Below are positions 9,091 to 44,880 of a stretch of 56,273 nt of DNA, one piece after another. The position numbers and the translations under genes were made by a program. The stretch is taken from assembly GCF_000177335.1 (NCBI RefSeq), contig NZ_ADFP01000011.1, positions 1 to 56,273 of the forward strand, in the 5' to 3' direction. Under the pieces are notes generated by a model, which had not been told where the DNA came from, made no database searches, and worked only from the letters and a program-made list of their open reading frames with translations. Position 1 is the first letter of the stretch; each line of letters starts with the position of its first letter. The DNA is from Pyramidobacter piscolens W5455. Its GTDB lineage: Bacteria > Synergistota > Synergistia > Synergistales > Dethiosulfovibrionaceae.

Positions 9091-10020
9091 ATGCTCAAGT
9101 ACACGATACGAAGGCTTATTTTGCTTGTCCCCGTTCTCGCGGGCGTGGCGCTGCTGGTCTTTACGCTGCTCTACATCACGCCCGGCGATCCGGCGCGCAT
9201 GGCTCTGGGAGAGGACGCGCCGCAGGAGGCGGTCGAGCAGTTCCGCAAGAATTACGGGCTTGACGACCCGTTTTTCGTGCAGTTCGGGCGCTACTGCTAC
9301 AAGGCGCTGCTCCACGGCGACATCGGCGATTCCTACGTTACGAAGTCGTCGGTGAGCGAGGAGATCCTCACTCGTTTCCCCACCACGCTGAAGCTCGCCT
9401 TCTGGGCGGTCGTGCTCGGCGTAGCGCTGGGACTGCCTTTCGGCATCATCTGCGCGATCCGGCAGTATTCGATCTTCGATTCGGTGTCGATGGTCTTGGC
9501 GCTGATCGGCGTCGCCATGCCGAACTTCTGGCTGGGCGTCCTGCTGATTTTGCTCTTTTCCGTAAAGCTGAACTGGCTGCCGCCCTCGGGCTTCACCACC
9601 TTCGCCGAAATGGCGATGCCGGTTTTCACGCTGTCCGGCGGCACGCTGGCCGTGATCACGCGCATGACCCGTTCCAGCATGCTGGAAGTCATCAAGTCCG
9701 ACTACGTGCGCACGGCGCGTGCCAAGGGGCAGCGCGAATCGGTCATCATTTGGCGTCACGCCTTGCCGAACGCGCTGATCCCGATTTTGACCATCGTCGG
9801 CATGCAGTTCGGCGGCCTTCTGAGCGGCGCGATCCTGACGGAGACAGTGTTCTCCATTCCCGGCGTCGGCCGTCTGATGGTGGAGTCCATCAAGATGCGC
9901 GACTTCCCCGTGGTTCAGGGCGGCGTGCTGTACATCGCGCTGGTTTTCTGCTTCATCAATCTGGCCGTGGATCTGCTGTACGCCTGGGTCGATCCGCGCA
10001 TCAAGGCAAAGTACCGCTAG
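9091..10020 (+). CDS. dppB: Dipeptide/oligopeptide ABC transporter permease DppB
   Basis: 309 aa; start chosen at MLKYTIRRL because AAGGGAG lies 7-8 nt upstream. It has a first TM (residues 9-30), a periplasmic N-terminal domain (TPGDPARMALG...YGLDDPFFVQF), then five further membrane segments. The EAA loop that docks the ATPase is seen in YVRTARAKGQRESVIIWRHALPNALIPI. It forms the inner-membrane channel with DppC. It is the first gene of dppB-C-D-F. Confidence 0.92.
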   Translation: MLKYTIRRLILLVPVLAGVALLVFTLLYITPGDPARMALGEDAPQEAVEQFRKNYGLDDPFFVQFGRYCYKALLHGDIGDSYVTKSSVSEEILTRFPTTLKLAFWAVVLGVALGLPFGIICAIRQYSIFDSVSMVLALIGVAMPNFWLGVLLILLFSVKLNWLPPSGFTTFAEMAMPVFTLSGGTLAVITRMTRSSMLEVIKSDYVRTARAKGQRESVIIWRHALPNALIPILTIVGMQFGGLLSGAILTETVFSIPGVGRLMVESIKMRDFPVVQGGVLYIALVFCFINLAVDLLYAWVDPRIKAKYR

Positions 10021-33204: not shown

Positions 33205-34154
33205 TCATTTAAAGCACCTAACGACCCATTGTCTTGCGGTAATACTCCTTATGGTCTGAACGGTGAGATTTCCGATCGTGCGGCACAGACGCTCGATGGG
33301 GTTCATCTCGGGGGTATTATGGAACAGGGGATGTTGGCGGGAACCTGAAGCGCTTTGGACTTGTGCCAAGCGGCTCCGTCACAGCAGAGCAGAATATGAT
33401 CTTCCGGAAATCGGCGTGAAAGTTCCCGCAGGATAATGTTCATACAATCGCTGTCGCAGCTGGGCATGATCAAAAAGAGGCTTTCTCCCGTAAGCAGCTC
33501 TATGGCGCCGTAAGCATAGCGGTATTCGCGGATGTGAAGGCAGGGAACGTTCGGGCGGACGCCTTCTGTACCAGCAGTATTTGGGCTTGTCGATCCTGCC
33601 GAAGCCGGCTTCGTCCTGGAACATCGGTCTGACGTTCCCTGATGTGGATAACTCTTTTAATTCCTGAACTTGAGCGTTAATTTTTTTTGAGGCCTCGATG
33701 GCCTCCTCGCGCGCTTTCTTGGGGTAATGGCTGCGCGGCATGACTTTTCTCCAGTCATGACGTTTCAGGACCGCATAAATATGAGTCGGACTGATAGTAT
33801 GTCCCACCGCGGTCTGATGGGCTATTTCCGCCACCGAAACGATTTCTCCTTTCTCGGCTTTCTCCAGATAAGGCGCAAGTACGGCTTCTTCCTGCTCACA
33901 GGTCATGTTCCGATGGTTGCCAAGGTAATGGCATGCAGCATATACGAGAGGCCGCGATCGATAAACTGCGAGATGATCTTGCTGACGTTCGTGAAGTGGT
34001 ATTCCGTGATTTCGCTGATTTCTTTCAAGGTTTTCCCCCCGGCGCGCAAGCTGAGGATTCTCAGTTTGGCTTTGATCTTCTTGTTGCGATTCTTTTTCCG
34101 CGCGGCTTCGATTTCCGCTTGCTGTTCTGATGTGATCTCGTATTTCACGGACAT
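33205..34154 (-). pseudogene. Decayed IS630-family transposase
   Basis: The first part (34154-33903, 83 aa) is an N-terminal helix-turn-helix (LSLRAGGKTLKEISEITEYHFTNVSKII). It runs into a stop and overlaps the next frame by ATGA, as in two-frame IS630 transposases. The second part has the Winged-helix and DDE start (FQDEAGFGRIDKPKYCWY). It then shifts frame near 33560; the correct sequence continues in another frame (RPNVPCLHIREYRYAYGAIE, then HILLCCDGAAWHKSKALQVP), and shifts again near 33335 into LFHNTPEMNPIERL up to a stop at 33205. Two frameshifts beyond the ORFA/ORFB overlap make it non-functional. No clear terminal inverted repeats were found. Confidence 0.8.
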
Positions 34155-34385: not shown

Positions 34386-36107
34386 CTACTGTGTCAGTAG
34401 TTCCGGCATCGGATCGACCCCGGCGGCCAGAAGGAGCCCGACTACCGCCGCGACGACAGCGGCATAGACCAGGCAGGGAAGGATGTTCGTACGGATCAGC
34501 TTGCCTTCGTTGCCGTTGGTGCCGGTGGTGGCGCAGACTGCAACGATATTGTTGACGCAGATCATGTTGCCGATGCCGCCGCCCATGGTCTGGAGCGCCA
34601 CGATGAGGACCTGGGACAGGCCGACGAGGGTCGCGGTCTCGAACTGCAGCGAAGCGAACAGCGTGTTTGACACCGTGCAGGAACCCGACATGAACGCTCC
34701 GAGAACGCCGATGAGCGGAGCGATAATGAAGTAAGTCCCCTGGAAGAGTTTCGCCAGCGCGTCGGCCATGACGTAGAGCATCGAGCTGTTCTTGAACGTG
34801 AACTCCGAGCCCGCCGCGGCGCCGGCGACAGCCGCCCCGATTTGCGCGCTCGACGTGTAGCGGTACAGGTTGACCATGGCGACGCCGAACAGCAAGGCTG
34901 TGGCCGCGCCGGACCAGTTTTTCACGGAATCTACGACGGCGATTTTGGTCTCTTCCCGCGACATGCGGTGCAGCGGAACCGTCAGGATTGCGACGAGGAC
35001 GAAGGGCATGATGCCGGGGTTGTACAGGAATTTGAAGTCCCAGCCGATTCCCTCGAAGCCGAGGATGTTCCCGACGCGCAGGATAAACGGATCGTTGTTA
35101 AAAAGGGTTTTGAGGCCGAAAGCGTTCAGCCTCGTCAGCACCAGGATAACGCCGATGACGATGTAGGGCGTCCAGGCCAGAAGTGGCTTCATGCTCTTGT
35201 CCTTGACGGATGTGACAACTGTGGTGGACTGCCAGGAGGGCTCGCCCCATTCTTTGTAGCCGTCGAAGGTCCAGACCTTTTTGGGGACGCAGACGCCTTT
35301 TTTCGCGCAGAACATCATCACGATCATGCCGCCGAGGAAAGCCGTCATGGAAATCAATTCGGGGGCGGCGAAGAACGACATGACGATGTAGATCGAGCCA
35401 ACGACGACGCCGGTGAGCAGGCAAAACGGAACGGCAGGGACGGCGTCCCTGAACGAACGGTTCTTCCCGAACGCCTTACACATCATGAAGACGACGGCCA
35501 TGATGATAAACAGACCGCCGATCATGTTCGGGATGCAGACCCAGCGTGTCAGCACCGTCGTGAATTTTTCGGGATCGCCGCCGAGATGTTTCACCGCGTC
35601 CGCAACGACTTTGGAAGCCGTGAGCAGCGGCACGCCGACAGGGCCGGGGTTGACAGGCGTCGAGTTGCAGACGAGGCAGATCGCCGCCGCGGCGAGAGGG
35701 GGAAATCCCAGGCTGATCAGAATCGGCGCGCCCAAGGCGGCCGGCGTGCCGAACCCCGCCGCCCCCTCGATAAATCCGGCGAAGCAGTAGCCGACGATGA
35801 TAGCCTGAAGACGCGCGTCTTCGGTGATGCCGGAGAACATTCCGTTGATGGAAGCCATGGCACCCGACTGCTTGAGCACGTTCATCAGCAGGATGGCCCC
35901 GAAAATGATGGCGCTCGTTTCGAAAGAAGCCAGGAAGCCGGCGACCGTTCGGGCGGCGGCTTCTCCGATCCCCATGCCCCAGACGGAGCACGCGACAGCA
36001 AAAGCCGCGAGCCATGAAATGATCAGCGATCGTTTGGCGGACCAGTTCATAAAGACCATGAAGACGATAGTGAGCAAGATCGGTACGGCGGCAATCAATG
36101 CATACAT
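34386..36107 (-). CDS. L-lactate permease family transporter (LctP/LldP)
   Basis: 573 aa with about 13-14 hydrophobic helices. Family motifs: GFIEGAAGFGTPAALGAPIL (about residues 112-131), STPVNPGPVGVPLL, and GGIGNMICVNNIVAVCATTG near the C-terminus. AAGGAGA precedes the ATG. LctP proteins import 2-hydroxy monocarboxylates (lactate, glycolate) with H+. Here the gene is divergent from a TetR regulator and the Grd-like locus, so it may import the substrate or export a carboxylic acid product of that pathway; this is inference. Confidence 0.9.
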   Translation of the reverse strand: MYALIAAVPILLTIVFMVFMNWSAKRSLIISWLAAFAVACSVWGMGIGEAAARTVAGFLASFETSAIIFGAILLMNVLKQSGAMASINGMFSGITEDARLQAIIVGYCFAGFIEGAAGFGTPAALGAPILISLGFPPLAAAAICLVCNSTPVNPGPVGVPLLTASKVVADAVKHLGGDPEKFTTVLTRWVCIPNMIGGLFIIMAVVFMMCKAFGKNRSFRDAVPAVPFCLLTGVVVGSIYIVMSFFAAPELISMTAFLGGMIVMMFCAKKGVCVPKKVWTFDGYKEWGEPSWQSTTVVTSVKDKSMKPLLAWTPYIVIGVILVLTRLNAFGLKTLFNNDPFILRVGNILGFEGIGWDFKFLYNPGIMPFVLVAILTVPLHRMSREETKIAVVDSVKNWSGAATALLFGVAMVNLYRYTSSAQIGAAVAGAAAGSEFTFKNSSMLYVMADALAKLFQGTYFIIAPLIGVLGAFMSGSCTVSNTLFASLQFETATLVGLSQVLIVALQTMGGGIGNMICVNNIVAVCATTGTNGNEGKLIRTNILPCLVYAAVVAAVVGLLLAAGVDPMPELLTQ

Positions 36108-36495: not shown

Positions 36496-37119
36496 ATGTC
36501 TGTAAATCTTATTACGAAGGAAGCGATCGCTTCGACGCTGGAGAGCCTTCTCCTGGAGAGGCAGTTTTCGAAGATCCCCGTAAAGGACGTTACTGAAGCC
36601 TGCGGCATCAGCCGGAATACATTCTATTATCACTTCAAGGACAAGTACGAGCTGATGAACTGGATCCTAGACGACGACATGGCGAAGAACGTGGAAAATT
36701 ATGACGACCCCATGCGCATTCCCGAAACGTTTGTGTCCATGTGCGGTTTTATGTACCGGAGGAAGAAGTTTTACTACCCCTGCATGCAGTACGACGGTCA
36801 GGATTCGTTGTACCAGCATTTGACGGATTTTTTCTTCGAACTGTGGAAGCTCAACATCGACATGGTGTATGCGGCGTCCGGGTTCAAGCTGAGCGAGTAC
36901 GAGATCACCGTTTACGCGAAAATGAACGCTCACGCTCTGGTGGGGCTGATGCGGGACTGGATCCATGCGGGGATGCGCGACAATTACAGGAGTTATTTCG
37001 AGCAAGTCAGCGAGATATTCCGCGTACAGAGCGAGATGTACGCCATCATGTCCGAAAATAAACAGATATCGAAACGCGGCGGTGCGACGAAAAACATTGG
37101 GGGAATACAGGCGTCATGA
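36496..37119 (+). CDS. TetR/AcrR family transcriptional regulator
   Basis: 207 aa. The N-terminal helix-turn-helix reads FSKIPVKDVTEACGISRNTFYYHFKDKYELMNWI (residues about 24-57), the DhaS/TetR_C_8-type signature. The rest is an all-helical ligand domain with several aromatic and Cys residues (FVSMCGFMYRRKKFYYPCMQYDG). AGGAGA lies upstream. The stop codon overlaps the next start (ATGA), so it is co-translated with the half-GrdB gene. It probably senses the pathway's substrate and controls itself and lctP. Confidence 0.85.
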   Translation: MSVNLITKEAIASTLESLLLERQFSKIPVKDVTEACGISRNTFYYHFKDKYELMNWILDDDMAKNVENYDDPMRIPETFVSMCGFMYRRKKFYYPCMQYDGQDSLYQHLTDFFFELWKLNIDMVYAASGFKLSEYEITVYAKMNAHALVGLMRDWIHAGMRDNYRSYFEQVSEIFRVQSEMYAIMSENKQISKRGGATKNIGGIQAS

Positions 37120-37937
37120 ACAAAGCGGAAATCATTTATTCTGTGACGGAGGAATCGGGCGAGGCGCGGGATAACGTCATCCCGTTCATCGCGTACCATA
37201 CGCCGGCGCCCAAACGCTGTCTCGACATGTTGCTCGCCAAGTATTACGGGGAAAAGTTTTGCTCGGAAGTGAAAATGCCCGTACCGGAAGAGCACGTGAC
37301 GCCGGTTCTTTCCGTTCCGCTCGCGGCGGCGCGGATCATGATGGTCACGGACGGGGGGCTGGTGCCGAAAGGGAATCCCGACTGCCTGCCGCCGTCCAAC
37401 GCGCGGGAGTTCCACGCCTATGGTTTCGGTTTTGCAGAGCGATTCAAAGCCGAAGAATACGAAGTGTCTCATCAGGGCTACGATCACGGCGACGTCGACG
37501 AAGACCCGAACCGCCTGCTCCCGCTGGATATCCTGCGGGAGATGACGCGCGCAGGGGAGATCGGCGGCGTTTATCCGCGTTTTCTGTCGACGACGGGCGT
37601 CATGATGCCTTCCGAGACGGCGCGCAGGATAGGGCGCGAGATTGCCGTCCGCGTGTCGGCCTGTTCGATTGACGCCGTGCTTATTGTTTCAACCTGTGGA
37701 ACCAGCACGCGATGCGGCGCCTGCATCGCGCTTGCGCTGGAAGATCGCGGGATTCCCGCAGTGCAGATCACGAACCTCACGGAGATCGCGTGGAGCATGG
37801 GCGTGCGGCACGTCGAAAAGGGCGCCAGCGTGGGGAGTCCGGTTGGTTTTGCGGGGCTTTCGCAGCAGGAGGAACGCCGACGGCGGCGGCGCATCGTCTG
37901 CTCGGCGCTGCGCAGGCTGTGCGCGGACTTTGCCTAG
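37116..37937 (+). CDS. Half-length GrdB homologue with Cys in place of selenocysteine
   Basis: 273 aa versus about 437 for GrdB. It aligns only with the C-terminal two-thirds of the full GrdB-like protein at 39404: LAKYYGEKFCSEVKMP, VTDGGLVPKGNPD, EYEVSHQGYDHGDVDEDPNRLLPLD, and the active-site loop VSTCGTSTRCGA, where C194 sits at the Sec position and C200 is kept. The N-terminal Rossmann-like part of GrdB is missing, and the C-terminus ends in a short Arg-rich tail (RRRRRRIVCSALRRL) instead of the usual one. The start overlaps the tetR stop. It may be a redox or thiol-based partner or a substrate sensor; not a simple pseudogene, because the frame and active-site loop are intact. Confidence 0.8.
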   Translation: MNKAEIIYSVTEESGEARDNVIPFIAYHTPAPKRCLDMLLAKYYGEKFCSEVKMPVPEEHVTPVLSVPLAAARIMMVTDGGLVPKGNPDCLPPSNAREFHAYGFGFAERFKAEEYEVSHQGYDHGDVDEDPNRLLPLDILREMTRAGEIGGVYPRFLSTTGVMMPSETARRIGREIAVRVSACSIDAVLIVSTCGTSTRCGACIALALEDRGIPAVQITNLTEIAWSMGVRHVEKGASVGSPVGFAGLSQQEERRRRRRIVCSALRRLCADFA

Positions 37938-37993: not shown

Positions 37994-38035
37994 AAAACAG
38001 ACATAGGCGTCCTTTGCCTATTGTCTGTTTTTTTG
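37994..38035 (+). terminator. Intrinsic terminator between half-GrdB and GrdE-like genes
   Basis: AAACAGACATAGGC and GCCTATTGTCTGTTT form a long stem around GTCCTTT, followed by seven T. It separates the tetR-halfGrdB transcript from the reductase genes. Confidence 0.85.
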
Positions 38036-38114: not shown

Positions 38115-39383
38115 ATGAGCAAGAGATTGCAGATTGATTACATCCACATTAAAGACGTGAAGTTCGGGGACCGAACGGCGCTCGATCACGGCGTCCTGAC
38201 CATCGACAAACAGGAACTGCTGGATATGGCGGGCAGCGAGCTGTTCGGAAAGCTGGACATCAAACTGGCCCGTCCCGGCGAAAACTGCCGCATCCTCGGC
38301 ATCCACGACATTATGCAGCCCCGGTGCAAAGCGGACGCGCCCGAGACGTCGTATCCCGGCATTTGGGGGAAACTCGCCCCCGTGGGCGAGGGACGCACGG
38401 TGGCGCTCAAGGGCGTGGTCGTTTCCGACATTTACTACGCCAAGTGCAACGTCAAATACTATCTTGACATGGGCGGAGAGTGCGCCAGGTACACGAACTT
38501 TTCGCGCCACTTCCACGTGATCCTGGACGCCGAACCGGCGGAAGGGGTCAGCGACCTGAGCTATGCGGAAGCGCTGAAATACGCGTCCCTGACGATCAAC
38601 GTCCGTCTGGCAAAACTCGGCATCGGCGAAACCCCGGACGAGACGAAAACGTACCAGCTCGGTCCGGTAGGCCCGGGCCCCGACGGCAAGCCGCTTCCCC
38701 GGGTGGCGTATCACGTCGTCCACATGGCCTCGCACGATACCTGGAACTTCCTGATGTACGGGCAGAGCGCGCTGAACTTCCTGCCGATCGTCGTGCAGCC
38801 GACCGAGATATTGGACGGAGCGATGATCTGGCGCTACTGGGAGCCGAACTACTTCCTGCAGGAAGAGATCTACATCAAGGAACTGATGGAACGCCACGGC
38901 AAAGATATTGATTTTGCCGGCGTGGTCTTCTCCAACAACGTCATGAAGATCGACGGCAAGGATACCATGGGCATGATTGCGGCGACGCTCTGCAAGGAAA
39001 CGCTGAAGGCGGACTGCGTCATCGTCAACAAGTCCGGCATGGGGCACTGCCAGCTGGATCAGGCGCTCGCCTTCAACTGGGAAGAGAAGATGGGCATGCG
39101 GTGCGTGATGAATCTGAGCGCCGTTTCCAACGACAGGCCCGGCGACATGCTGGTCATCGCCGACCCGAGGATCGACGCGGTCATCAACAGCGGCCGGAAC
39201 TACGATCTGCACCATCCGCGCGTGGAGCGCCTGATCGGGGAGGGGACGAACGTGCCCTCGCTGCTGGGCGTGGACGCGAAGGGGCCGTTCACGCATACGA
39301 CGAACTTCGCGTATCAAGGGATCTGGTCGCAGCTCGGCGACTGTTACGTGACGACGGACGCGGACCTTCCCTACTCCAAGTGA
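38115..39383 (+). CDS. Glycine/sarcosine/betaine reductase component B, GrdE/GrdG/GrdI-like subunit
   Basis: 422 aa with GGAAAGGAGAGG upstream. Family sequence throughout: HIKDVKFGDRTALDHGVLTIDKQEL at the N-terminus, KLARPGENCRI, VGEGRTVALKGVVV, QPTEILDGAMI, and MERHGKDIDFAGVVFSNN. In glycine-reductase GrdE a GNC segment right after PTEVMDGAIV is autoprocessed to a pyruvoyl cofactor. Here that segment reads WRYWEPNYFLQEE and has no cysteine. So it is probably not cleaved, as reported for the betaine enzyme, and does not use a Schiff base. Twenty bp upstream of the selenoprotein gene, as in known grd pairs. Confidence 0.88.
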   Translation: MSKRLQIDYIHIKDVKFGDRTALDHGVLTIDKQELLDMAGSELFGKLDIKLARPGENCRILGIHDIMQPRCKADAPETSYPGIWGKLAPVGEGRTVALKGVVVSDIYYAKCNVKYYLDMGGECARYTNFSRHFHVILDAEPAEGVSDLSYAEALKYASLTINVRLAKLGIGETPDETKTYQLGPVGPGPDGKPLPRVAYHVVHMASHDTWNFLMYGQSALNFLPIVVQPTEILDGAMIWRYWEPNYFLQEEIYIKELMERHGKDIDFAGVVFSNNVMKIDGKDTMGMIAATLCKETLKADCVIVNKSGMGHCQLDQALAFNWEEKMGMRCVMNLSAVSNDRPGDMLVIADPRIDAVINSGRNYDLHHPRVERLIGEGTNVPSLLGVDAKGPFTHTTNFAYQGIWSQLGDCYVTTDADLPYSK

Positions 39384-39403: not shown

Positions 39404-40723
39404 ATGTCTGAACCGATCAGAGTGGTGCACTACATCAATCAGTTCTTCGCCGGCATGGGCGCGGAAGATACCGCGAGCGTCGGCGTTTCCGTCAGAGAGG
39501 AGCCGGTTGGCCCCGGACTCGGGCTGCAGAAGGAACTGGGGGACGACTATAAGATCGTTGCGACGATCATCTGCGGCGACAACACGATCGCCGAAAAAAC
39601 AGACGAGATTCTCGCCGAATTCGACAAGCTGATCCGGAAGTACGACGCCCAGCTGTTCATCGCCGGGCCCGGCTTTAACGCGGGACGTTACGGGATCGGC
39701 TGCGGCGCTTCGACTGCCTACGTAACGGAAAAGATGAAACTTCCCGCGGTGACCGCGCTATACTCCGAAAATCCCGGCACGGATCTTTACAAGGACCGCT
39801 GTTACATCCTGCAGACCGACAACAGCGCGGCGGGCATGCGGCAAACGCTTCCCAAGCTGGCGGCGTTCGCCAAACGGCTTGCGGCGGGAAGCCCAATCGG
39901 CGACGGGAAGAAGGAAGGCTACCATGGCTCCGGTCCCGCCGTGGAGATCGATTATTCCGTTCCCGCCAGCCGCCGGGGAGTGAATATGCTGCTTGCCAAA
40001 TATCATAACAAGCCCTTCGCGACGGAAGTCCGCATGCCGAATCACGAGGAGATCCCGCTTCCGGTGCTGCATAAACCGCTGAAAGAGATCAAACTCGCTC
40101 TGGTCACGGACGGGGGGCTTGTACCCAAGGGCAATCCGGACAGCATGGTGCCGACCAATTCCAAGACCTTCAACAAATACAGAATCGGCAACGTGGCGCG
40201 CCTTGACGCAAAAGATTACGAAGTCAGCCACCAAGGCTACAACAACGCTTTCGTGTTGGACGACCCGAACCGCCTCGTTCCCGTGGACGCAGCGCTTGAT
40301 CTCAAGAAGAAGGGCGTGATCGGCGAATTGCTGGATTCGTACTACACGACGGCCGGCGTGATGACGCCGATGGAAATGGGCAAAAAATTCGGCAGCGAGA
40401 TCGCCGCGGACTTGCGCAAGCAGGATGTCGACGCGGTCATCCTGACCAGCACGTGAGGCACGTCTTCACGCTGCGGTGCAGTGATGACGAAAGAGATCGA
40501 ACGTGCCGGCATCCCGGTCATCCACGTGACGAACCTGACGGAAATCTCCAAGGGGATCGGCAGTCACAGGATCCTCAGGGGCAACAGCGTCCTGCACGTC
40601 TTTGGGAACCCGAAACTGCCGAAGGAGCAGGAATTCAAATACCGCGAGGAACGCTTGGAAAAGGCTCTCGACATGCTGGAAGAAAAACCGGAAGCTGGAC
40701 AGCACACGCTTATCGAGGAGTAA
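39404..40723 (+). CDS. Selenoprotein: glycine/sarcosine/betaine reductase component B, GrdB/GrdF/GrdH-like (Sec351)
   Basis: 439 aa when the in-frame TGA at 40454-40456 is read as selenocysteine. The codons before and after stay in one frame and give LTST-U-GTSSRCGAVMTKEIERAG, matching the family active site STUGTCTRCGA; the middle Cys of that motif is Ser354 here and Cys357 is kept. Without readthrough the protein would end at 350 residues, exactly at the catalytic residue. AAAGGAGGAATC precedes the ATG. In the known enzymes, with the GrdE-type subunit it activates the substrate and transfers a carboxymethyl group to selenoprotein GrdA. GrdA and GrdCD are not in this window. Confidence 0.9.
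40458..40479 (+). promoter_or_regulatory. Candidate SECIS stem-loop for Sec351
   Basis: Directly after the UGA, GCAC (40458-40461) pairs with GTGC (40476-40479) with two further pairs inside and a loop of about nine bases (CTTCACGCT). Bacterial SECIS elements sit just 3' of the UGA, within the coding region, so location fits. The stem is short and the assignment needs folding and comparison. Confidence 0.45.
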
Positions 40724-40877: not shown

Positions 40878-41759
40878 ATGAAGTACAATTGCGAAGTGAT
40901 CGATCTGGCAAGGAAAGACAATGGCAAGAAACTGTACTTTACGAAATTTGACTGTCCCGCCAGCTGGGGCGACAAGAATGTACTGCTCGTACACGGTTTG
41001 ACCTACACCCAGCACGTTTTTGACATCAAGTACAAGGATTACAGCGTCTGCGAATATTTTGCGAAAAACGGCTACACGGTGTGGCGCGTCGATCTCGGCG
41101 GATACGGACGTTCGGAAGAATACGAAAACGGTTTCGACGTCACGACCGAGAACGCTGCGAAAGATATCCTCTGCGCTGTGGAGAAAATCTGCGAACTCCA
41201 GAAGGTCGAGAAGGTCCCCGTCGTCGGCTGGTCCTGGGGAACCATGACGACGGCGAAGGCCGCCGAACTCGACAAGAGTACCCATATCAGCAAGATCGTC
41301 TGGATGGGACCGTTCCTGGGCGGCGCTTTCCCTCCCGCCGAGTGCAAGGATCCGTTTACTTTCCTGCAGTATCCGTACGTCGTTCGGGTATTCCAGCATC
41401 TTCCCGGCAGCGATGAAGACGTCGACATGGACACTGTCGAGCCCGAAATCGTAGGACTTTGGTGCGACCATGTCTACAAGATCGACGGCAAGCACGGCCG
41501 CCCGAACGGCGGAAACAGGGAAATTCTTGGCTGCGGCGACAAATGGTCGGTCGAGACCAAGAAAGTCCCGTGTCCCGTTCTGATCGTTACCGGAGACTGC
41601 GATTTCTATGTGAATATCGACCGCGTCTACCAAGCGGCCAAGGAACTGCCGGAAGGTTCTCAGCTTCTTCACCTGCACGGCGCCGGCCACTGCATGTACC
41701 TCGAGAAGGATTACTACAAGAAGACCAGGGAGACGATCCTCGACTTCCTGAACAAGTAG
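40878..41759 (+). CDS. Alpha/beta hydrolase 1 of the Grd-like locus
   Basis: 293 aa. Start ATG has GAAAGGAGACG upstream. Oxyanion region VLLVHGLTYTQHVF (HG at 39-40), nucleophile elbow GWSWG with Ser119, catalytic Asp at 240 or 242 in VTGDCDFY, and catalytic His271 in HGAGH. No signal peptide; cytoplasmic. The family covers esterases, lipases, dehalogenases and thioesterases and the substrate cannot be read. It lies 154 bp behind the selenoprotein and is closely related to the hydrolase at 43999 (same length, same catalytic pattern). A role in freeing or finishing the reductase substrate is inference. Confidence 0.85.
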   Translation: MKYNCEVIDLARKDNGKKLYFTKFDCPASWGDKNVLLVHGLTYTQHVFDIKYKDYSVCEYFAKNGYTVWRVDLGGYGRSEEYENGFDVTTENAAKDILCAVEKICELQKVEKVPVVGWSWGTMTTAKAAELDKSTHISKIVWMGPFLGGAFPPAECKDPFTFLQYPYVVRVFQHLPGSDEDVDMDTVEPEIVGLWCDHVYKIDGKHGRPNGGNREILGCGDKWSVETKKVPCPVLIVTGDCDFYVNIDRVYQAAKELPEGSQLLHLHGAGHCMYLEKDYYKKTRETILDFLNK

Positions 41760-43858: not shown

Positions 43859-43998
43859 GATTCTATGGGAAAAAGCGGATGTCCGCACAGATTGCCGGAG
43901 GGGCCGCGCAGACATCGGATACGGCGCGCGGCTCACGATGCGCGGGCACTTCGGGGAGTCGCGGCGAACGAATTCGGATTGTGAAAAAGGAGGCATTC

Positions 43999-44880
43999 AT
44001 GGAGTTCTCGTTTGAAAGCGTTTTTGTACGGAGAAAAGACAACGGCAAGAAGATCTTCGTAAACAGGTGCTTCTGTCCGGCCAGCTACGACGCGAAGAAC
44101 CTGCTTTGCGTACATGGTCTGACGTCGTCGAACCACGTATTTGACCTCGATTACAAGGATTACAGCGTGGCGCGCTATTTCGCGCGAAACGGTTATAACG
44201 TCTGGTGCATGGATTACGGCGGCTATGGGCTGTCGGACAAATACGAGAACGGTTTCGATGTGGACACGGAGAACGCGGCGAAGGACGTTGTCGCCGTCGC
44301 CGGGGAAATCTGCGCGCGCCAGCATGCCGACAAGCTGAACGTCCTTGGCTGGTCTTGGGGAAGCATGACCTCCGCCCGGGCTTCCGCGATGCGTCCCGAA
44401 CTGTTCCGAAGAATGGCGTGGGTCGGCCCCTGTTTTGGCGGCACGCTTCCGACGACCGTGGTCAAAGAACCTTTTACCACGCTTTCCTATCCGTATTGCG
44501 TGCGCGTGTTTCAAAGGGTGAACGGCTCGGATACGGAAGTCGACTATGCGACGGTGGAGCACGGTTTGGTGAGTCTGTGGGTCGAACAGGTGTTCAAAAA
44601 CGACGCGGGGCACGGACGTCCCAACGGAGGCAACCGCGACATCTCGGCTGCAGGGGACAAATGGCTGATCGAACCGGAGACGGCCACGTGCCCCGTCCTT
44701 CTTCATTTCGGGGACAAAGACGTGTACGTCGACAAAGGACGGGTCAAAATAGCCCTTGACAAGCTACCGAACGGTTCCGCCTGCAATTTCATGAAAGGCG
44801 CGGGGCACGCGCTCTGGGTGGAAAGGGATTATTACAGACCCTTCCGCGAGCGGACTCTGGCGTTCTTTGAAGAGGAGTGA
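43999..44880 (+). CDS. Alpha/beta hydrolase 2 of the Grd-like locus
   Basis: 293 aa from MEFSFESVFVRRKDNGK, with AAAAAGGAGG upstream. A full-length paralogue of hydrolase 1: shared KDNGKK start, NLLCVHGLTSSNHVFDLDYKDYSV, DYGGYGLSDKYENGFDV, nucleophile elbow GWSWGS (Ser about 119), HGRPNGGNRDI, GDKDVYVD (Asp) and KGAGHALW (His). The two probably arose by duplication and act on related substrates. A terminator follows. Confidence 0.85.
   Translation: MEFSFESVFVRRKDNGKKIFVNRCFCPASYDAKNLLCVHGLTSSNHVFDLDYKDYSVARYFARNGYNVWCMDYGGYGLSDKYENGFDVDTENAAKDVVAVAGEICARQHADKLNVLGWSWGSMTSARASAMRPELFRRMAWVGPCFGGTLPTTVVKEPFTTLSYPYCVRVFQRVNGSDTEVDYATVEHGLVSLWVEQVFKNDAGHGRPNGGNRDISAAGDKWLIEPETATCPVLLHFGDKDVYVDKGRVKIALDKLPNGSACNFMKGAGHALWVERDYYRPFRERTLAFFEEE

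What the first reader, a model, noticed from the sequence alone, without database searches (positions are those of the whole stretch)
40454..40456. In-frame UGA decoded as selenocysteine in GrdB-like gene
The frame stays open across TGA from 39404 to 40723. The residues around it (TST-U-GTSSRCGA) match the GrdB active site, where Sec is expected. An automated annotation would split or truncate the gene. The middle cysteine of the canonical UGTCTRC motif is Ser here, leaving only Sec351 and Cys357.
Basis: partly seen in the sequence, partly recalled or inferred. Interest (0 to 1): 0.7.

Follow-up and report, generated by a model that had tools for sequence, protein, structure and literature searches.

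The report
Selenocysteine fluoroacetate reductase with likely sensor
The internal stop codon is real and almost certainly read as selenocysteine: the gene is farB, part of an enzyme already proposed to let gut Synergistota break the carbon-fluorine bond of the poison fluoroacetate, and beside it lies an overlooked half-size, cysteine-bearing copy of the enzyme that is tied to a gene regulator and probably senses the substrate.

Summary
Confirmed and identified. ORF 39404-40723 carries one in-frame TGA (40454-40456), and homology to the GrdB family continues to its end. The genome has tRNA-Sec, SelA, SelB, SelD, GrdA and component C. All 26 intact orthologues compared keep the TGA. In the 17 closest, synonymous codon variation is at its gene-wide minimum exactly at codons +5 to +9 after it, where a bacterial SECIS lies.

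The gene is not a glycine, sarcosine or betaine GrdB. It is FarB. Its neighbour (38115-39383) is FarE (NF053623, 938 bits, cut-off 675) and lacks the pyruvoyl cleavage site. Leong et al. 2023 (PMC10838667) described this system and noted that FarB lacks CxxC, so the core finding is already known.

New here: (1) two FarB clades, UGTSSRC (this window and the fluoroacetate degrader C12-8) and UGTSSRG (Cloacibacillus). (2) The module also occurs in Bacillota, Actinomycetota and a Myxococcota/Deltaproteobacteria MAG. (3) A Cys-for-Sec half-GrdB (37116-37937) overlaps a DhaS-like TetR gene. In Synergistota it occurs only in far-positive genomes (6 of 9, against 0 of 179), and in one Pyramidobacter it is fused to the TetR. 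I propose a DhaS/DhaQ-like sensor pair that induces far. This is untested.

The parts
34386..36107 (-). LctP-family (lactate/glycolate permease) transporter, divergent to the cluster; candidate fluoroacetate/small-acid importer
   Evidence: TIGR00795 316 bits and PF02652 316 bits; adjacent in 13 of 30 FarEB loci
36496..37119 (+). TetR-family regulator, DhaS-like (TetR_N + TetR_C_8)
   Evidence: TIGR02366 DhaS 107 bits, cut-off 129; nearest solved structures 4mk6 and DhaS 2iu5
37116..37937 (+). HalfB: C-terminal half of a GrdB/FarB, Cys194 in place of Sec; proposed ligand-sensing partner of the TetR
   Evidence: PF07355 146 bits over profile 181-347; overlaps the TetR gene by 4 nt; Cys in all 22 rows
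37695..37697 (+). Cys codon of HalfB at the position of Sec (VSTCGTSTRCGAC)
37994..38030 (+). intrinsic-terminator-like hairpin with T-run between HalfB and farE
   Evidence: -18.8 kcal/mol, z -6.7; longer stretch -23.3, z -8.8
38115..39383 (+). farE, fluoroacetate reductase subunit without pyruvoyl site (WRYWEP where GrdE has SGNCVSACDK)
   Evidence: NF053623 937.8 bits, cut-off 675; alignment
39404..40723 (+). farB, selenoprotein subunit, 439 aa with Sec351
40454..40456 (+). in-frame TGA read as Sec351
   Evidence: present in all 26 intact FarB compared
40469..40483 (+). codons +5 to +9 after the TGA: lowest synonymous diversity in the gene; SECIS-like nucleotide constraint
   Evidence: rank 1 of 179 windows in 17 orthologues

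Best explanation
The TGA encodes selenocysteine 351 of FarB, the catalytic selenoprotein of a fluoroacetate reductase (a glycine-reductase component-B relative). Proposed chemistry, inferred from Leong 2023 and glycine-reductase knowledge: FarE holds the haloacid without a pyruvoyl or Schiff base. The FarB selenolate attacks the alpha carbon and expels fluoride, leaving carboxymethyl-Sec, which passes to the common GrdA and component C to give acetyl phosphate. Shown here: open frame and homology through the TGA, Sec machinery, conserved TGA, synonymous constraint after it, FarE identity, loss of the pyruvoyl site, and orthology to the sole FarE copy of the fluoroacetate degrader C12-8. Inferred: Sec insertion itself, the substrate in this organism, and the role of the neighbouring TetR plus Cys half-GrdB as a DhaS/DhaQ-like substrate-sensing pair controlling far (my probability about 0.45-0.5).
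For: Frame and family match. Sec machinery. TGA in 26 of 26 intact orthologues with true TAA/TAG ends. Synonymous minimum at codons +5 to +9 (Arg always CGC, Ala always GCA in 17 genomes; GC3 ranged 0.30-0.76 among those tabulated). FarE equivalog 938 bits against cut-off 675, and a C. porcorum-like locus with MFS-rSAM-FarE-FarB order also passes (883 bits). FarE lacks the NC cleavage site. Sharp gap in the phylum (FarE orthologues 62-100%, all others 35% or less). C12-8 orthologue 99% (FarE) and 95% (FarB), its only FarE-clade copy. GrdA with TGA and component C present. Published induction and degradation data: PMC10838667, PMC12366334.
Against: No protein or 75Se data here. The hairpin after the TGA is not much better than shuffles (z -0.92) and shows no covariation. 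farA (MFS) and farC (radical SAM) are absent beside farEB in this window. FarB scores below the GrdB, GrdF and GrdH equivalog cut-offs, and no FarB model appeared among the NCBIfam hits. No purified FarEB assay is known to me, and its presence in many gut Bacillota suggests another natural substrate may exist.
Confidence: 0.86

Rival explanations
1. FarEB here is a Sec-dependent reductase, but its natural substrate is another small 2-substituted acid (for example chloroacetate or a glycolate-like acid); fluoroacetate is a side activity.
For: LctP lactate/glycolate-type permease adjacent in 13 of 30 loci; the module occurs in human and animal gut Bacillota where fluoroacetate is unexpected. Leong et al. 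also doubt that fluoroacetate is the preferred substrate.
Against: Strong fluoroacetate induction in C. porcorum MFA1 (about 5,000-fold) and a degrader strain, C12-8, with this clade only.
Confidence: 0.35
2. The TGA is a true stop, giving a 350-aa truncated FarB or a pseudogene.
For: Table-11 annotation gives this; the fold after the TGA is not clearly better than shuffles.
Against: The downstream 88 codons are conserved as protein in 25 orthologues, the TGA itself is invariant, Sec machinery is present, and the three ordinary GrdBs of the same genome have TGA at the same site.
Confidence: 0.03
3. The half-GrdB (37116-37937) is a third enzyme subunit, PrdB-like, rather than a sensor.
For: Keeps Cys194 and Cys200, the GrdB C-terminal fold region and an active-site-like motif.
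Against: Cys in place of Sec in every copy, overlap or fusion with a TetR gene, a strong terminator before farE, PrdB model score far below cut-off (74 against 300), and FarEB without it in 9 of 30 loci (some on short contigs).
Confidence: 0.2

Closest known systems
farACEB fluoroacetate reductase of Cloacibacillus porcorum MFA1 (Leong et al. 2023, PMC10838667)
   Same: FarE above the equivalog cut-off, no pyruvoyl site; FarB with Sec and a broken CxxC motif; TetR plus half-GrdB also directly downstream in the C. porcorum-like genome (L077)
   Different: No MFS (farA) or radical SAM (farC) beside farEB; an LctP permease instead; FarB motif UGTSSRC rather than UGTSSRG
far-like cluster of Pyramidobacter piscolens (same paper, Fig. 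3d legend: bioH, fadR, acrR nearby)
   Same: Matches the window's gene content: alpha/beta hydrolase, FadR-type and TetR regulators, no farA or farC
   Different: None evident; this window is probably that locus or a sibling (organism name not given by the tools)
Glycine reductase selenoprotein B (GrdB) with GrdE
   Same: PF07355 family, Sec at the same site, same gene order E-B
   Different: UGTSSRC instead of UGTCTRC; partner lacks the pyruvoyl cysteine; scores 392 against cut-off 602
D-proline reductase PrdB
   Same: Half-length GrdB homologue, like HalfB
   Different: HalfB has Cys, not Sec, scores 74 against cut-off 300, and pairs with a TetR gene
DhaS/DhaQ regulatory pair of Lactococcus lactis (from my own knowledge; DhaQ called coactivator in PMC7911632)
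   Same: TetR of the DhaS type next to a paralogue of the enzyme subunit
   Different: The paralogue is of FarB, not of DhaK; TetR scores 107 against the DhaS cut-off 129; fused into one protein in one genome

Membership tests
Bacterial selenoprotein | In-frame TGA with family homology on both sides | tested here: met
Bacterial selenoprotein | tRNA-Sec, SelA, SelB and SelD in the genome | tested here: met
Bacterial selenoprotein | SECIS element just after the TGA | tested here: inconclusive
   Synonymous constraint at codons +5 to +9 is the strongest in the gene; hairpin z -0.92 and no covariation
Bacterial selenoprotein | Selenium actually incorporated | not testable with these tools
   needs 75Se or mass spectrometry
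GrdB family (PF07355) | Profile match above gathering score | tested here: met
   430 bits, cut-off 22
Glycine / sarcosine / betaine GrdB equivalogs | Curated equivalog score | tested here: not met
   392/602, 449/800, 385/775 bits
Glycine / sarcosine GrdB | UxxCxxC motif | tested here: not met
   UGTSSRC
Fluoroacetate reductase FarEB | FarE equivalog score | tested here: met
   937.8 bits, cut-off 675
Fluoroacetate reductase FarEB | FarE without pyruvoyl cysteine | tested here: met
Fluoroacetate reductase FarEB | FarB without the conserved CxxC | tested here: met
   First Cys replaced by Ser; second (Cys357) kept in this clade, lost in the Cloacibacillus-like clade
Fluoroacetate reductase FarEB | farA (MFS) and farC (radical SAM) in the operon | tested here: not met
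   Absent beside farEB in the window; Leong et al. report the same for P. piscolens, which still degrades fluoroacetate, so this is not a strict requirement
Fluoroacetate reductase FarEB | Fluoride release from fluoroacetate | not testable with these tools
   Orthologue in degrader C12-8 only by sequence
D-proline reductase PrdB (for HalfB) | Curated equivalog score | tested here: not met
   73.7 bits, cut-off 300
DhaS/DhaQ-type regulator pair (TetR + HalfB) | TetR is a DhaS equivalog | tested here: not met
   107.4 bits, cut-off 129; so DhaS-like only
DhaS/DhaQ-type regulator pair (TetR + HalfB) | Paralogue of the enzyme subunit linked to the TetR | tested here: met
   Overlap of 4-7 nt in most loci with TetR and HalfB in tandem; fusion in L078; tree groups HalfB with FarB at 100/100
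DhaS/DhaQ-type regulator pair (TetR + HalfB) | Paralogue acts as ligand-dependent co-regulator | not testable with these tools
   needs expression or binding assays

The most novel reading that the evidence does not exclude
The half-size, Cys-for-Sec FarB paralogue is a dedicated haloacetate sensor: its active-site Cys194 binds or is carboxymethylated by the substrate, and together with (or fused to) a DhaS-like TetR it switches on the far genes. It would be a decommissioned selenoenzyme turned into a transcriptional co-regulator, explaining the strong induction by fluoroacetate.
Probability: 0.45. Interest if true: 0.7.

Novelty: already known. Interest (0 to 1): 0.45.

Why it matters
C-F bond cleavage by a selenoenzyme bears on livestock poisoning by fluoroacetate plants and on anaerobic defluorination. 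The selenoprotein itself is published. What is new is that the module also occurs in Bacillota, an Actinomycetota MAG and a Myxococcota/Deltaproteobacteria MAG, that two FarB motif clades exist, and that a Cys-type half-enzyme is welded to a TetR regulator. That last point makes the unknown inducer sensing of far directly testable, and it warns annotators that the half-gene is probably not an enzyme.

Tried and rejected
Glycine, sarcosine, betaine and D-proline reductase identities: rejected by curated cut-offs. Alpha/beta hydrolases at 40878-41759 and 43879-44880 as fluoroacetate dehalogenases: not supported; by inspection the first has a serine-type nucleophile elbow (GWSWG), the best NCBIfam matches are polyhydroxyalkanoate depolymerase/esterase types, and only a weak haloalkane-dehalogenase hit (20.6 bits) appears for the second. 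A covarying SECIS hairpin: not found, since the sequence is nearly invariant. A pooled synonymous test over both FarB clades was not significant (P 0.26 with 5 usable codons); the single-clade test was clear. A shared TetR operator palindrome upstream of TetR and farE: none convincing. Solved relatives of FarB: none by sequence. HalfB model (pLDDT 85) gave no clear fold match in Foldseek or VIA-align. A joint TetR/HalfB alignment for the fusion was misaligned and not folded.

Full report
1. Observation. Reading TGA as a residue, 39404-40723 yields a 439-aa protein with one TGA, codon 351 at 40454-40456, in the context LTSTUGTSSRCGAV. A clear ribosome site precedes the ATG. An 88-codon open stretch after the TGA is not rare at 61% GC (P about 0.06), so the open frame alone proves little. 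The family match does: TIGR01918 aligns residues 6-427 (412 bits against cut-off 65).

2. Is it selenocysteine? The genome that holds the window (G000, 2.56 Mb in 140 contigs) has tRNA-Sec (ARAGORN anticodon TCA), SelB, SelA and a SelD that itself carries a TGA. The three ordinary GrdBs of this genome all carry one TGA at the same site, in UGTCTRC, UGTCTRC and UGSCTRC. GrdA has an in-frame TGA too. A scan of public genomes with the neighbouring protein FarE gave 22 loci, and a phylum search gave more. All 26 intact FarB genes compared keep the TGA and end at TAA or TAG; one further copy (L038) carries an extra stop and was set aside. After the TGA, third positions change far more than first and second ones, as in coding sequence.

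3. RNA signal. The fold just after the TGA is weak (z -0.92) and does not covary. In the 17 orthologues with UGTS(S/T)RCGAV, however, the lowest synonymous diversity of the whole gene falls exactly on codons +5 to +9 (rank 1 of 179 windows). Arg is CGC in 17 of 17 and Ala is GCA in 17 of 17; in the genes for which it was tabulated GC3 runs from 0.30 to 0.76 (that sample also includes L045 of the other clade at 0.25). This is what a SECIS inside the coding sequence would do. A test pooled over both clades was not significant, because the second clade has a different peptide there.

4. Which family? The protein scores below the equivalog cut-offs for glycine, sarcosine and betaine selenoprotein B (392/602, 449/800 and 385/775 bits). 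The upstream gene 38115-39383 hits NF053623, fluoroacetate reductase subunit FarE, with 937.8 bits against cut-off 675. In Synergistota FarE orthologues stand at 62-100% identity and everything else at 35% or less. FarE has WRYWEP where the glycine- and sarcosine-type GrdEs of the same genome have SGNCVSACDK, so there is no pyruvoyl group. Leong et al. 2023 (PMC10838667) described farACEB in Cloacibacillus porcorum MFA1: about 5,000-fold induction by fluoroacetate, FarB lacking CxxC, FarE lacking the processing cysteines, and a P. piscolens locus without farA and farC whose fluoroacetate activity was reduced by 70%. Their Fig. 3d legend lists bioH, fadR and acrR genes in such clusters, which fits this window. 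The fluoroacetate degrader Pyramidobacter sp. C12-8 (PMC12366334) carries the orthologous locus (FarE 99%, FarB 95%) as its only FarE-clade copy. The core finding is therefore already known.

5. Anatomy beyond the paper. (a) FarB splits by motif: UGTSSRC or UGTSTRC (this window, C12-8, most Bacillota) and UGTSSRG (Cloacibacillus-like genomes, Catonella, others), in which the second Cys is lost too. One Pyramidobacter genome (G118) holds one locus of each kind. (b) The module is not confined to Synergistota: Lachnospiraceae, Clostridiaceae, an Olsenella MAG and a Deltaproteobacteria/Myxococcota MAG carry it. (c) In 13 of 30 loci an LctP-type permease lies beside it; this may replace farA.

6. 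The half-GrdB. Between the TetR gene and farE lies 37116-37937, the C-terminal half of a GrdB with Cys194 at the Sec position. It is present in 21 of 30 FarEB loci (some others are short contigs), always Cys. In a profile search of 188 Synergistota genomes the Cys half-type occurs in six genomes only (at least 388 bits, no TGA). FarBs follow at 337-369 bits and every other listed GrdB at 269 or less. All six are among the nine far-positive genomes (hypergeometric P 1.5e-9; relatedness not corrected). A tree joins HalfB and FarB against the ordinary GrdBs of this genome with 100/100 support; FarB is one clade, and HalfB a group or grade beside it.

7. Proposed role. HalfB overlaps or closely follows a TetR gene: overlap 4 nt here, 7 nt in most Lachnospiraceae, a gap of about 85-110 nt in four loci, and fusion in L078. 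In a few loci (L032, L037) the two genes are near but not in tandem. In the C. porcorum-like genome the pair lies directly after MFS-rSAM-FarE-FarB. In G118 TetR and HalfB are one 524-aa protein with TetR_N, TetR_C_8 and GRDB domains; it is the only fusion found in the phylum. The closest solved relatives of the TetR are a DhaK-regulator and DhaS. DhaS works with DhaQ, a paralogue of the kinase subunit (own knowledge; DhaQ is called a coactivator in PMC7911632). A strong terminator-like hairpin separates HalfB from farE in the window (z -8.8), so the pair is probably a transcription unit of its own. I therefore propose that HalfB senses the substrate through the retired active site and that the pair controls far. 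Shown: linkage, Cys replacement, fusion, phyletic pattern. Inferred: binding, direction of control, operator (none found).

8. Verdict. The Sec claim is well supported and the gene is FarB of a known system. The added interest lies in the regulator pair. The mechanism of defluorination is taken from the literature and family chemistry, not shown here.

Noticed in passing
L078:5270-6844 (-), genome G118: TetR and Cys-type half-GrdB fused in one 524-aa reading frame with a linker of roughly 80-100 residues; the only such fusion among 188 Synergistota genomes.
   Followed up: partly
L019 8075-9400 (-) and about 9701-9795: A P4-like tyrosine integrase gene lies about 300 bp from the tRNA-Sec gene, suggesting an island inserted at selC (recognised by eye, not tested).
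   Followed up: no
window 33379-34154 (-): Two adjacent ORFs look like halves of a frameshifted IS630-type transposase beside the LctP gene (recognised by eye, not tested).
   Followed up: no
window 40878-41759 and 43879-44880: Two related alpha/beta hydrolases and two GntR/FCD regulators follow farB; this set is shared with C12-8. They do not look like fluoroacetate dehalogenases.
   Followed up: partly
L076:10273-11520 (-): Amidohydrolase next to far in the C. evryensis-like genome, in the place where the C. porcorum-like genome has the radical SAM gene (matches hutI in the Leong Fig. 3d legend).
   Followed up: partly
L038:9279-10595: FarB copy with an additional in-frame stop in a Clostridium MAG; pseudogene or assembly error.
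   Followed up: no
G000:C66:7469-8401: SelD of this genome also contains an in-frame TGA, so it is probably a selenoprotein itself.
   Followed up: no
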